Assembly (NCBI GenBank): GCA_947631515.1
Contig: CANRLP010000005.1
Location: forward strand, 1-33,649
Length of the DNA: 33,649 bases
Reading direction: 5' to 3'
From: an uncultured Bacilli bacterium
Lineage (GTDB): Bacteria; Bacillota_I; Bacilli_A; RF39; UBA660
Shown here: positions 26,616-30,941 of the stretch, in pieces
Layout of the letters: each line of letters begins with the position of its first letter
Numbering within the stretch: position 1 is the first letter of the stretch
Translations under genes and position numbers: made by a program
Notes under the pieces: model-generated
Seen by the model: only the letters and a program-made list of their open reading frames with translations
Told to the model about the DNA's origin: nothing
The model's database searches: none

Positions 26616-26698
26616 TCCCTTATTCTATCAATTATTATAGCAAAAGCTTTTTAAAATGTAAATAAGGTAAAACTAATAATCAAAATACTATCATAAAC

Positions 26699-28243
26699 TT
26701 ATTTTAAAGTTTTTATTAATTTTTGAGCTGTTTTTAGTATTTCAGGTGTTGGAGTACTAATAACTTCGTCATAAAAATCTTGAAAATTAGAGTTAGGATT
26801 AATAATTCCTACATTAATCATTTCTTGTAACTCATAAGGTAATGTCTTTTGTAATTCCATAAGTTTCTTAACAACTTCTTGCTTTTTAATATAATTAATT
26901 TCATCATAGCGATTCATGGTGTAAAAAAAAGCTAAATTTCTTAAAAAGAAACGCATAAAAGTATTAGTAAAATCTTCATAAATTAGGTTTTTTAGATAAT
27001 ATTTACAAATATATTTTAATTTTTTTAAAACTAAATCGTTTTTTTCTTTAGAACTATTTTGAAATAATACTTGTAATAATAAATTACATATATCTCCTTG
27101 TAAAGTTAGAAATTGAGCATTAAAACTAGGTAATAAAAATTCATTTTTTAAATTTTCAAACTCTTTAGGCAAAAACTTTTCTATTAAACTATTGCCATCC
27201 AAACTTAAAAAATCAGTATCTTTATAACAATCTAAAAAAATCAAATTGGCATCTAAAAAGCCTTCGGTAAAATGAGAATGCGGACTAGTATATAAAAGTT
27301 CAAAAATTTTTAAAGTTGGATAACGTTTCCAAAAGCTTAAATTTGTCCCATTAATTTTAATCATAAATTCATAGGCATCATCAACAATATTTCTTAATAT
27401 TTCACTATTTTTATTTTTACTTTTCATAGAGTTATAAATTAACGAAATATCTAAATCAGAAATTTTTGAAATAAAATTATATTTTTTTAATAAGCCATAA
27501 GAACCTTGAATAAAAAATTGATTATTATAAGCAGAAGATTTTTCTAAAATATGACAATATAAATAATCACTCAATAATATGTCAATATTAATATTATTTT
27601 TAACGTTTAATTCTTCTAAAACTTCATCAAAATAAGGTGATTCAATAAATAATTTTTTATCTTTCCAATTAACTTTTGTAGTTTGTCCAATATATACTGG
27701 TTTGTAGTTAACAACTTCGCAAGATACATTTTTATAATTATTAGCAATAAAATCATTGGTATGTAAGTGACCATGATAATTTATTCCTTGCGCACATTTT
27801 TTAAATTCGTTGACAATCAGCTGAAATTGTAAATCTTTTTTTTCTTCATTAATTAGGGGTTCATGTGACAAATAGTTTTCTTTTAATCTAACAGGATTTT
27901 TAAATACATATTCGAAACCTAAAGTTGGAAAATGTTTAATTATATCTGAATAATCATGATTACCAAGAATCAAATATTTATGACCATTCATTTTTGATAT
28001 GGCTTCTCTAATATAATCTTTTTTAAAAGAAAAATCTCCTAGAAATATTACTATATCATCTTTTAAAACTATTTCGTTATGTCGATTAATGATATATTCG
28101 TTCATGGCATTTATATCAGAAAAATTTTGTCTCGTATATTGAATTATATTTTGATGGCAAAAATGTTGATCACCAATTACATAAATTTTACTATTTGGGT
28201 GTAACTTACATAACATTTGATAAATATCTAGAGTATAATTCAT
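26699..28243 (-). CDS. Metallophosphoesterase fused to an AbiEii/MNT-like nucleotidyltransferase domain
   Basis: MPE motifs 'GDQHFCHQNI', 'GDFSF', 'GNHD', 'SHEP', 'GHLHT'; NTase-like 'FFIQGSYGLLKKYNFISKISDLDISLIY' (GS...DxD) plus downstream Asp candidates. ATG at 28243 with GGAGAGGA SD. Confidence 0.75.
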   Translation of the reverse strand: MNYTLDIYQMLCKLHPNSKIYVIGDQHFCHQNIIQYTRQNFSDINAMNEYIINRHNEIVLKDDIVIFLGDFSFKKDYIREAISKMNGHKYLILGNHDYSDIIKHFPTLGFEYVFKNPVRLKENYLSHEPLINEEKKDLQFQLIVNEFKKCAQGINYHGHLHTNDFIANNYKNVSCEVVNYKPVYIGQTTKVNWKDKKLFIESPYFDEVLEELNVKNNINIDILLSDYLYCHILEKSSAYNNQFFIQGSYGLLKKYNFISKISDLDISLIYNSMKSKNKNSEILRNIVDDAYEFMIKINGTNLSFWKRYPTLKIFELLYTSPHSHFTEGFLDANLIFLDCYKDTDFLSLDGNSLIEKFLPKEFENLKNEFLLPSFNAQFLTLQGDICNLLLQVLFQNSSKEKNDLVLKKLKYICKYYLKNLIYEDFTNTFMRFFLRNLAFFYTMNRYDEINYIKKQEVVKKLMELQKTLPYELQEMINVGIINPNSNFQDFYDEVISTPTPEILKTAQKLIKTLK

Positions 28244-28313
28244 ATAATCCTCTCCAAAAATTATTTGATATATTATCATTTTTTTCATTTAAATTCAATT
28301 GTTAAATCGAACA

Positions 28314-28344
28314 AAGAAAAAAATGCTACTATAAGCATTTTAAA
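28314..28344 (-). terminator. Intrinsic terminator after the GT-C-like gene
   Basis: Minus strand AAAATGCTTATAGTAGCATTTTTTTC. Confidence 0.7.
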
Positions 28345-28378
28345 AGATTTATCATAGCATAATTATTTTTTCACTAAA

Positions 28379-30037
28379 TTATTTTTTTTCATAATAAAAA
28401 TATATAAATAAATGTATAATTAGATTTATTCCAAATAATATATAGCTAATTTTCATAAGAGTCGTACCTGTATATTTTAATTCATACGTTCCAGATTCAT
28501 TTATACTGGCTTGTAAAAAGCCATTTTCACTTTCTTTTATTTCTATATTCTTTTTATTGTTTGTTAATTGATAACCAATATAATACAATCTAGGAAACTC
28601 AATGTTACTTTCTTCTTTTACTTCTATTTCAAAAATTAAATCATTTGTATCATTCTTTATAATATTTATTGTTGCATCACCGCTTAATATTAATATATCA
28701 TTTGTTCTATTATTATAATATTCTTTATTTAAAGTTGTTTTATGTGGTAAATATTCTTTTTCATTTCCCATTCCATAATCTGTACTTATATTATTAATAT
28801 CCATTGTTTTATCTAAATGATAGGTATTATAAAACATTTCAGTTGTACATAAAAGCATTAAAAGAATACATACTTTTCCGAACCATTTTTGTGTGGATAT
28901 TTTATTTAAAAAAATCATTGCTAGCAATATTCCTGAAAATTGTACAAATAAGGTTAATCTCCAAGGAAATTGTAATGTTTGTAAAATACTAGGAATATAA
29001 GCCCATGGAAATAAATTTGTTGTCATAATAACAGAAAGTGCAAAAAATAACAAAAGAAATAAAAAGGTTTTCTTTTTCCATAATTTATTTTTTAAAGATA
29101 TAAACATACTTGCAAAAATCATTAAAGTAATACTCAATTGTAAATGATGACGTATATTATCAAATGTGTGAGGTTTAGAAAATGTAAGATATTCTGATAA
29201 TTTTAAGGTACTATATTGTAAATCTCCTTTAGCGGTTAAATAGTAAGGAACAAAGATTGTATAATCAGTACTTAACTTAACTTCTAACAATGTAAGCCAG
29301 AAAGGGGCTGTGAAACATAAAATTGAAACACTAGATACAATTAACCAAAGAATACTTTTCTTATTAAAAATTTCTTTTAAGTATACTATAAAAAATGTAC
29401 TCAATAATATTAAAGTCAAATAAATAGATACAGCCATATGAGAATAAATAGAAATCGTATATCCCAATGTGAAATAAATATAAAAATTTTTATATTTTTT
29501 TTCTTTTAATTCTAATAATCCCAATATAATAAGAGGAATAGCAATAAAGATAAACATTTCTGAAAACGCATCACGAATATATATTTCAGCAATATGATAA
29601 GGAGCACTCATATAAAATAAAGAGCCAAGCATTGCTACTTTGTTATTTTTAAAAATCTTTTTGCCTAATAAATAAAAAGTTATTCCAGATAATAAAATCG
29701 TTAGCCATCCTGTGATTCGCATACTGATTAAAATATTATTAATATTAAAAAGTTGTAAAAACTTAGCTATATATGCTGCAATTAAATGTGGCATAGGAGG
29801 ATAAAAAAATCTTACTCCATATCCAAAATTATTTGCAATTAAAGACAAAGGCTCCCTTACAAACCAATTATTCCAAGATAATTGATTTACTATACTTTTT
29901 ATATTCAAAAAATGAAATTCAGCGTCATGACCTACATATTCAAAGTTCCATAACATTGGCAACATAACAACTATGCTAAATATAAAAATTATCAAAATAT
30001 TTTTTTGATTCATTATTTTTTTTATTATACTTTTCAT
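28379..30037 (-). CDS. Multi-pass membrane protein, GT-C-like (6-pyruvoyl-tetrahydropterin synthase-related membrane domain) putative glycosyltransferase
   Basis: 'NFEYVGHDAEFHFLNIKSIVNQL', 'NNFGYGVRFFYPPMPHLIAAYIAKFL'; about 10 TM segments and a C-terminal soluble domain. Confidence 0.7.
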   Translation of the reverse strand: MKSIIKKIMNQKNILIIFIFSIVVMLPMLWNFEYVGHDAEFHFLNIKSIVNQLSWNNWFVREPLSLIANNFGYGVRFFYPPMPHLIAAYIAKFLQLFNINNILISMRITGWLTILLSGITFYLLGKKIFKNNKVAMLGSLFYMSAPYHIAEIYIRDAFSEMFIFIAIPLIILGLLELKEKKYKNFYIYFTLGYTISIYSHMAVSIYLTLILLSTFFIVYLKEIFNKKSILWLIVSSVSILCFTAPFWLTLLEVKLSTDYTIFVPYYLTAKGDLQYSTLKLSEYLTFSKPHTFDNIRHHLQLSITLMIFASMFISLKNKLWKKKTFLFLLLFFALSVIMTTNLFPWAYIPSILQTLQFPWRLTLFVQFSGILLAMIFLNKISTQKWFGKVCILLMLLCTTEMFYNTYHLDKTMDINNISTDYGMGNEKEYLPHKTTLNKEYYNNRTNDILILSGDATINIIKNDTNDLIFEIEVKEESNIEFPRLYYIGYQLTNNKKNIEIKESENGFLQASINESGTYELKYTGTTLMKISYILFGINLIIHLFIYFYYEKK

Positions 30038-30177
30038 TAACTTTTTTTCCTCTTTAAATTTATATTTACGTATTTCAAAGGCTAAGAAAAATTATCTTTA
30101 GCTCCAGCGCTAAGGATTATTTTATCTTTCTTTAAGTAATAATTTTATCTCCATATCTTATTTATTAACTTAACGGC

Positions 30178-30206
30178 ATTGTATCATATATACTTTAAAT
30201 ACTCAA
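30178..30206 (-). promoter_or_regulatory. Predicted promoter for the 28379..30037 gene
   Basis: Minus strand TTGAGT - 17 nt - TACAAT with extended -10 TGA; leaves ~135 nt leader. Confidence 0.65.
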
Positions 30207-30358
30207 TATTTCTATAACTTCTAAATGTATTATCTCACACTATACTTTGGTATTAAATCTAATAATAGATTTGATATAATTATTTATATGAGAAAAAATA
30301 CGCTATATTATTTTGGATTTTCTTCGTATTAATATCTCAAGAAATGGATTTGATCTTT

Positions 30359-30763
30359 ATGATAAAAAAATTTATGATTTTATGTTTAATTGCGTTTTTA
30401 TTATGTGGTTGTCACGATAATAAAAATAAAAATGATATTTTAAATTACATGGAAAGAATTTATTATAAAGATGATGAATATGCAATTTATTCAAATTTTA
30501 CTAATTTGCAAATAAAAATAGACAATCAAATTTACACCTTAAAAGATGCTTTTGAAAAAAATAAAATCACTTTAGAAGAGTTGATAAATAATATGATATG
30601 GTTTGCCGATTATAATGATGGCGGCTCAAAAGCTTATAAATCTAGTTCAGAAATGGAAGTTAATGGCGAATTTTATTTAGCAACATGTAATACAGTACAT
30701 GGAAATAAAAATATTGTAATTGGAAATACTTCCAATATTGTAGATTATTGTCAATATAATTAA
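30359..30763 (+). CDS. Putative small lipoprotein
   Basis: 'MIKKFMILCLIAFLLCGCHDNK' lipobox (LCGC). ATG at 30359 preferred over 30344. Confidence 0.65.
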   Translation: MIKKFMILCLIAFLLCGCHDNKNKNDILNYMERIYYKDDEYAIYSNFTNLQIKIDNQIYTLKDAFEKNKITLEELINNMIWFADYNDGGSKAYKSSSEMEVNGEFYLATCNTVHGNKNIVIGNTSNIVDYCQYN

Positions 30764-30941
30764 AAAAATAGAATTAGTGGTAAATATTTTATGAATTGTA
30801 TATCTATGATGATAAAAATATGAATTTATGAAATAATTATCTATAATATTTATGTAAAATGAAAAGAGGTTAATATATGCAAAAAAAGAACTGATATTTC
30901 TATCAATTCTATATGTATAAAAGCTTAAAGCTTATAAACCT

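What the first reader, a model, noticed from the sequence alone, without database searches (positions are those of the whole stretch)
26699..28243. Metallophosphoesterase fused to an AbiEii/MNT-like nucleotidyltransferase in one polypeptide
The N-terminal half keeps the calcineurin-like MPE metal motifs in order (GDQH...H, GDFSF, GNHD, SHEP, GHLH). The C-terminal half has a minimal-NTase signature (FFIQGSYGLL...SDLDISL) with a helical tail like the AbiEii type. NTases of this kind nucleotidylate RNA or protein targets (for example AbiEii-like and MenA-like toxins adding nucleotides to tRNA); an attached phosphoesterase could reverse or trim the modification, or process an RNA end. A combined writer/eraser or RNA-repair enzyme is an inference. 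There is no partner gene next to it, so it may be self-contained.
Basis: partly seen in the sequence, partly recalled or inferred. Interest (0 to 1): 0.72.

Follow-up and report, generated by a model that had tools for sequence, protein, structure and literature searches.

The report
Phosphoesterase fused to a tRNA-toxin-like nucleotidyltransferase
A gene in a small-genome gut bacterium makes one protein with two intact enzymes, one that removes phosphates and one that adds nucleotides, and because the same two activities are also paired in unrelated bacteria and in phages they probably work together on RNA ends, although nobody has tested this.

Summary
Window 26699-28243 (-) encodes one 514-aa protein. 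Residues 19-188 are a complete metallophosphoesterase (MPE); residues 200-356 are a polymerase-beta-type nucleotidyltransferase (NTase), followed by a helical tail. AlphaFold2 gives pLDDT 90 and pTM 0.89. Foldseek against the PDB matches the N-terminal half to 1xm7 and the C-terminal half to the AbiEii-like proteins JHP933, MenT3 and MenT4. All metal-binding residues of both enzymes are invariant in 23 diverse fusions (down to 32% identity), with no conserved neighbour gene. The fusion is rare (18 of 386 genomes of its family), lies in many different places and is missing, with 4.2 kb, from the same site in a close relative.

New here: the pairing recurs. In gut Alphaproteobacteria a true AbiEii gene (Pfam PF08843) is directly followed by a related MPE in all 24 genomes with a strong hit, without an antitoxin gene in the 14 loci listed. 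In a phage an RlaP NTase (an RNA-repair family) is fused to an MPE in the reverse order, near a Thg1 gene. So an NTase and an MPE acting on one substrate, most likely an RNA 3' end, is well supported. Whether the MPE prepares the end for refilling or erases what the NTase wrote is undecided. It is not a canonical AbiEii: no PF08843 match, no motif IV, no AbiEi.

The parts
26699..28243 (-). MPE-NTase fusion gene, 514 aa plus stop (ATG at 28243; an in-frame upstream ATG at 28288 would add 15 aa)
   Evidence: homologues start at the equivalent of 28243
27680..28189 (-). metallophosphoesterase domain, residues 19-188; motifs at 28163-28171 (DQH), 28034-28039 (GD), 27953-27964 (GNHD), 27863-27868 (SH), 27761-27772 (GHLH)
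   Evidence: PF00149 E 1e-5 to 1e-7; phrog_547 E 6e-37; 1xm7 by profile E 3e-13 and by fold E 3e-8
27176..27646 (-). polymerase-beta-type NTase core, residues 200-356
   Evidence: PADLOC AbiEii profiles match in 17 of 23 homologues, best E 9.5e-10; fold hits JHP933, MenT3, MenT4
27449..27505 (-). NTase motifs 1 and 2: G247-S248-x14-D263-L-D265
   Evidence: invariant in 23 homologues
27251..27253 (-). D331, the probable third catalytic acid (hDh strand)
   Evidence: invariant in 23 homologues; assigned from its position on strand 325-334 of the model
26705..27151 (-). C-terminal helical domain, residues 365-513; conserved N387, R431, N436, R445
   Evidence: model; conservation; no Pfam match
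26666..30880 (.). 4.2-kb segment (fusion gene, membrane protein gene 28379-30037, small ORF 30344-30763) absent from the same site in the same-genus relative G011, where 72 bp stand instead

Best explanation
It is a bifunctional RNA-end enzyme. Shown: one polypeptide with two intact active sites, an MPE of the COG4186/1xm7 type and an AbiEii/MenT-like NTase with a helical domain, both under purifying selection, with no dedicated partner gene. Well supported by recurrence: the two activities act on a common substrate. Inferred: the substrate is an RNA 3' end, most likely tRNA. The MPE removes a 3'-terminal phosphate or 2',3'-cyclic phosphate and the NTase then adds one or a few nucleotides to the freed 3'-OH, as a small stand-alone 'clean and refill' unit carried as accessory cargo. 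The opposite order (the NTase writes, the MPE erases) is the main rival. The confidence given is for the clean-and-refill version; that both halves act on the same nucleic-acid end I put at about 0.7.
For: Both catalytic sets are invariant in 23 fusions and both halves show low dN/dS. The confident fold has MenT3/MenT4/JHP933 as the best NTase matches; MenT toxins extend tRNA 3' ends (PMC10435456, PMC11541572). An AbiEii NTase (PF08843, E 1e-17 to 1e-22) is directly followed by an MPE in all 24 gut alphaproteobacterial genomes with a strong hit; no AbiEi-like gene lies upstream in the 14 loci listed. A phage protein fuses RlaP (PF10127, 'RNA repair pathway DNA polymerase beta family', E 1e-5) to an MPE, with a Thg1 gene (PF04446, E 7e-27) near by. 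RlaP is predicted to restore lost nucleotides in RNA repair (PMC7824862). The MPEs of the three cases belong to different branches of the MPE tree, so coupling probably arose more than once. Precedent from established knowledge: bacterial CCA-adding enzymes that carry an HD phosphohydrolase domain.
Against: No substrate is known for either half. The nearest characterised NTases are toxins, not repair enzymes. The distribution is patchy and copies decay (frameshift, stops, remnant), which suits a toxin or defence gene as well as repair. The window's genome has its own CCA-adding enzyme candidate (PF01743). No RtcB was found in it (the assembly is about 90% complete), so ligation-based repair of internal breaks lacks that partner. 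The context of stand-alone phage MPEs is mixed.
Confidence: 0.4

Rival explanations
1. Self-contained writer/eraser: the NTase is a toxin-like enzyme that adds nucleotides to tRNA, and the fused MPE removes them (or trims the RNA), acting as a built-in antitoxin in place of AbiEi.
For: The NTase resembles MenT toxins by fold. In Alphaproteobacteria the MPE is the operon partner of a true AbiEii gene with no AbiEi upstream, while the two plasmid relatives inspected have an upstream overlapping partner gene, DUF6088 in one. Patchy spread, different insertion sites and decaying copies resemble TA or defence genes. GlnD (NTase plus HD domain) is a known writer/eraser (established knowledge).
Against: A fused eraser gives no labile antitoxin. 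In the Alphaproteobacteria the pair sits in one conserved place beside tsaD and, in most of the loci listed, rplS-trmD-rimM genes, unlike a mobile toxin. RlaP, the phage partner, is a predicted repair enzyme.
Confidence: 0.3
2. Regulatory phosphatase: the MPE removes a phosphate from the NTase itself (for example from invariant S262, next to DhD), reversing auto-phosphorylation like that of MenT3 S78 or MenT1 T39.
For: MenT toxins are silenced by phosphorylation at a residue just before the DxD motif (PMC11375011, PMC7205606), and the latter paper postulates an unknown phosphatase. S262 is invariant in 23 homologues.
Against: No antitoxin to induce auto-phosphorylation is present. RlaP-MPE needs another explanation. 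The spacing differs (S directly before D here, S-x-D in MenT3).
Confidence: 0.1
3. Small-molecule or protein modifier (for example antibiotic nucleotidylation, or nucleotidylation of a protein) with a phosphoesterase that processes the product.
For: The NTase superfamily includes such enzymes, and JHP933 has been compared with LinA/LinB (PMC4125220).
Against: LinA/LinB are not among the 50 listed fold hits; the AbiEii/MenT-like group leads them. The pairing with RlaP near Thg1 points to RNA.
Confidence: 0.15

Closest known systems
AbiEii / DUF1814 toxins (PF08843), including MenT3/TglT and MenT4
   Same: NTase core fold plus helical domain; hG[GS]...DhD motif; conserved DY helix before it; weak but significant profile matches
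   Different: No PF08843 match, no motif IV, no motif II arginine, no AbiEi antitoxin gene, x14 instead of x15 spacing, fused to an MPE
JHP933 of Helicobacter pylori (4ok0, 4o8s)
   Same: Best fold match of the C-terminal half (E 1e-6)
   Different: No MPE; 11-12% identity; function unknown
COG4186-type phosphoesterases (1xm7, phrog_547)
   Same: Full MPE motif set and fold; clear sequence relationship
   Different: These stand alone; the fusion MPEs form their own clade (100/100)
RlaP-MPE phage fusion (L119, L121) and alphaproteobacterial AbiEii-MPE operon (L103 and others)
   Same: The same pair of activities
   Different: Other NTase families or subfamilies; reversed order, or two genes
CCA-adding enzymes with an HD domain; GlnD; Pnkp
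   Same: Work-alikes: nucleotidyltransferase plus phosphohydrolase in one protein (established knowledge)
   Different: The hydrolase is HD rather than MPE in Cca and GlnD; in Pnkp the nucleotidyltransferase is a ligase-type domain. Not homologous as whole proteins

Membership tests
Calcineurin-like metallophosphoesterases (PF00149) | Profile match over the curated cut-off | tested here: met
   26.3 bits against a cut-off of 21.5; domain alone 32.9 bits
Calcineurin-like metallophosphoesterases (PF00149) | Motifs DxH, GD, GNHD, H, GHxH in order | tested here: met
   invariant in 23 homologues
Calcineurin-like metallophosphoesterases (PF00149) | Phosphoesterase activity | not testable with these tools
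   needs a biochemical assay
Polymerase-beta NTase superfamily | hG[GS], DhD and a third acidic residue, on an NTase fold | tested here: met
   PF18765 Polbeta weakly in 3 of 23 members
AbiEii/DUF1814 (PF08843) | Profile match | tested here: not met
   PF08843 is not among the families matched up to E 1 by the 23 members; the whole-genome search for PF08843 finds nothing in G000
AbiEii/DUF1814 (PF08843) | Motif IV, +DxxD, in the C-terminal domain | tested here: not met
   absent in 22 of 23; the one match is at a variable position; motif defined in PMC3985639
AbiEii/DUF1814 (PF08843) | Arginine within motif II and x15 spacing | tested here: not met
   the position is variable, spacing is x14
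AbiEii/DUF1814 (PF08843) | Fold of NTase plus helical bundle as in MenT/JHP933 | tested here: met
   Foldseek E 1e-6 to 7e-5, probability 1.00, TM normalised by target 0.47-0.54; some of the matches have high rmsd
[quoted passage not shown]
   no conserved neighbour in about 25 loci
CCA-adding enzyme | PF01743 match | tested here: not met
   no match; a separate PF01743 gene is in the genome at G000:C1
RlaP (PF10127) | Profile match | tested here: not met
   no match

The most novel reading that the evidence does not exclude
MPEs of the COG4186 type are a recurrent, independently recruited partner of polymerase-beta NTases, in places standing where the AbiEi antitoxin would be. Together they form an undescribed class of reversible or repair-type RNA 3'-end editing enzymes, found as a fusion in gut Bacilli, as an operon in gut Alphaproteobacteria and as a reversed fusion in phages.
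Probability: 0.4. Interest if true: 0.8.

Novelty: new variant of a known kind. Interest (0 to 1): 0.62.

Why it matters
AbiEii/MenT-type NTases are known mainly as toxins held by AbiEi-like antitoxins. Here such enzymes are tied instead to a phosphoesterase, in at least three separate arrangements. If the pair heals and refills RNA ends, it would be a compact RNA-repair unit and would suggest that part of the AbiEii-like superfamily is not toxic. If the pair writes and erases, it would be a toxin with its antidote built in. The two are easily separated by expressing MPE-dead and NTase-dead versions.

Tried and rejected
1) Canonical AbiEii membership: rejected on PF08843, motif II arginine, motif IV and the lack of AbiEi. 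2) The fusion as the cell's only CCA-adding enzyme: rejected for the window's genome, which has a PF01743 gene. 3) Phage or plasmid carriage of this fusion: no record covers 80% of the query, and a single-sequence C-terminal scan of viral contigs found nothing. 4) A mobile element around the window copy: the 4.2-kb insert shows no clear flanking repeats, and I recognise no integrase among its ORFs. 5) Direct sequence homology of the fusion NTase with the alphaproteobacterial NTases beyond the motif region: weak (hhalign E 0.0043), so I treat them as separately recruited. 6) A repair context for all stand-alone phage MPEs: mixed, not used as evidence. 7) The first genome-contig scan, with a single sequence, found nothing; the alignment query did. 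8) A 2016 Nucleic Acids Research paper that I recall as covering RNA-repair systems (doi 10.1093/nar/gkw722) is not held, so a prior mention of the coupling cannot be excluded.

Full report
What is there. The minus-strand ORF 26699-28243 encodes 514 aa. Pfam finds a metallophosphoesterase (PF00149) at residues 19-159 and nothing in the C-terminal half; PHROGs gives phrog_547 'phosphoesterase' at E 6e-37. PADLOC gives a weak AbiEii match at residues 198-292. Over 23 homologues this becomes firm: 17 match an AbiEii profile, best E 9.5e-10.

The family. A search of 386 genomes of the same family finds 18 with strong matches that reach into the C-terminal half; at least four of these are truncated or broken. 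A further same-genus carrier, G015, appears. A scan of genome contigs gives 26 such loci (L038-L063), mostly gut metagenome-assembled genomes labelled Bacilli, Tenericutes or Erysipelotrichaceae. Twenty-three proteins, the window's and 22 others (one cut by a contig end), down to 32% identity, keep every MPE metal residue and G247, S248, K253, K254, S262, D263, D265, K306 and D331. Nearest-pair dN/dS is low in all three regions: mostly 0.05-0.3, and up to 0.7 in the helical tail of the most distant pair listed.

Structure. AlphaFold2 with the 23-sequence alignment gives pLDDT 90 and pTM 0.89; the C-terminal part alone gives 92.1 and 0.90. Against the PDB the first ten hits are 1xm7 (MPE), JHP933 and the MenT3/MenT4 toxins, E 3e-8 to 5e-5. 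The C-terminal model alone gives only JHP933, MenT3 and MenT4 below E 1e-3. TM-scores of about 0.5 over the target say same superfamily with a diverged helical part.

Genomic behaviour. No neighbour gene is conserved over about 25 loci; flanks include genes that I recognise by eye as thrS, serS, ileS, htpG, mnmE and others. The flanking coiled-coil gene of the window occurs in 20 of 21 same-genus relatives. In G011 the order coil gene, tRNA-Trp, orf143, LysM gene is kept, but window bases 26666-30880 are missing and 72 bp stand in their place. LigA joins G000 with G015 at 100/100 support, while the fusion of G015 joins G285 at 96/99: the gene history is not the species history. Several copies are broken: frameshift in G009, stop codons in G352 and G414, a remnant in G024, a truncated copy in G372; some of these could be assembly errors.

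The pairing recurs. Among stand-alone MPE relatives, 24 loci from gut Alphaproteobacteria have an NTase ORF immediately upstream on the same strand. In the four tested it is a true AbiEii (PF08843, E 1e-17 to 1e-22). It lies typically 5-25 nt from the MPE gene, and the 14 loci listed show no AbiEi-like gene. In 114 genomes of that order, 24 have a strong NTase hit and all 24 have the MPE next to it; a 25th, weak hit has none. Two related AbiEii genes on rhizobial plasmids have an upstream overlapping partner gene instead, annotated DUF6088 in one and hypothetical in the other. On viral contigs L119-L121 a 471-aa protein carries RlaP (PF10127) followed by an MPE, near a Thg1 gene. In a tree of MPEs the fusion forms one clade (100/100), the operon type another (94/85), and the phage one sits with a phage MPE (98/87), with stand-alone MPEs between them. 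Some branches are long, and one early coupling with many losses is not formally excluded. But the NTases belong to different families or subfamilies, so repeated coupling is the simpler reading.

How it probably works. MenT toxins add nucleotides to tRNA 3' ends (PMC10435456, PMC11541572) and RlaP is predicted to restore nucleotides in RNA repair (PMC7824862). An MPE coupled to both kinds of NTase suggests a shared RNA 3' end. Two orders are possible: heal then refill, or write then erase. The MPE standing where an antitoxin gene would be in the Alphaproteobacteria speaks for the second; the RlaP and Thg1 context, and the conserved placement of the alphaproteobacterial pair, speak for the first. 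I favour the first slightly. The window's genome has a CCA-adding enzyme candidate and no RtcB was found, so 3'-end repair without RtcB ligation would be the form expected.

What is shown and what is not. Shown: gene, domains, intact catalytic residues, fold, family, selection, absence of a partner, empty site, recurrence of the pairing. Inferred: enzymatic activity of both halves, RNA as the substrate, the direction of the reaction, and any role in defence or addiction. The literature search covered openly licensed papers only and found no description of this coupling.

Noticed in passing
L103:5044-6513 and 23 other alphaproteobacterial loci: Two-gene operon of a PF08843 AbiEii NTase and a COG4186-type MPE, with no antitoxin gene in the loci listed, in a conserved place between tsaD-side genes and (in most) rplS-trmD-rimM.
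   Followed up: yes
L119:5179-6591, L121:5161-6576: Phage protein with an N-terminal RlaP NTase and a C-terminal MPE, close to a Thg1-like gene.
   Followed up: partly
loci (L039, L050, L052, L055, L059, L062): The fusion gene lies beside an aminoacyl-tRNA synthetase gene (serS in two lineages, thrS, ileS) somewhat more often than I would expect by chance; not tested formally.
   Followed up: no
window 26666-30880: Accessory segment next to tRNA-Trp carrying the fusion, a 552-aa membrane protein without a Pfam match and a 139-aa ORF with a lipoprotein-like start; absent in relative G011.
   Followed up: partly
L012:1483-2928: A stand-alone MPE gene is followed by an MNT-type NTase and a HEPN-like gene (by eye), a further MPE-NTase neighbourhood in the same family of genomes.
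   Followed up: no
L042:95-1258: A TnpB-like (IS605 OrfB) gene lies directly upstream of one copy of the fusion, identified by eye only.
   Followed up: no
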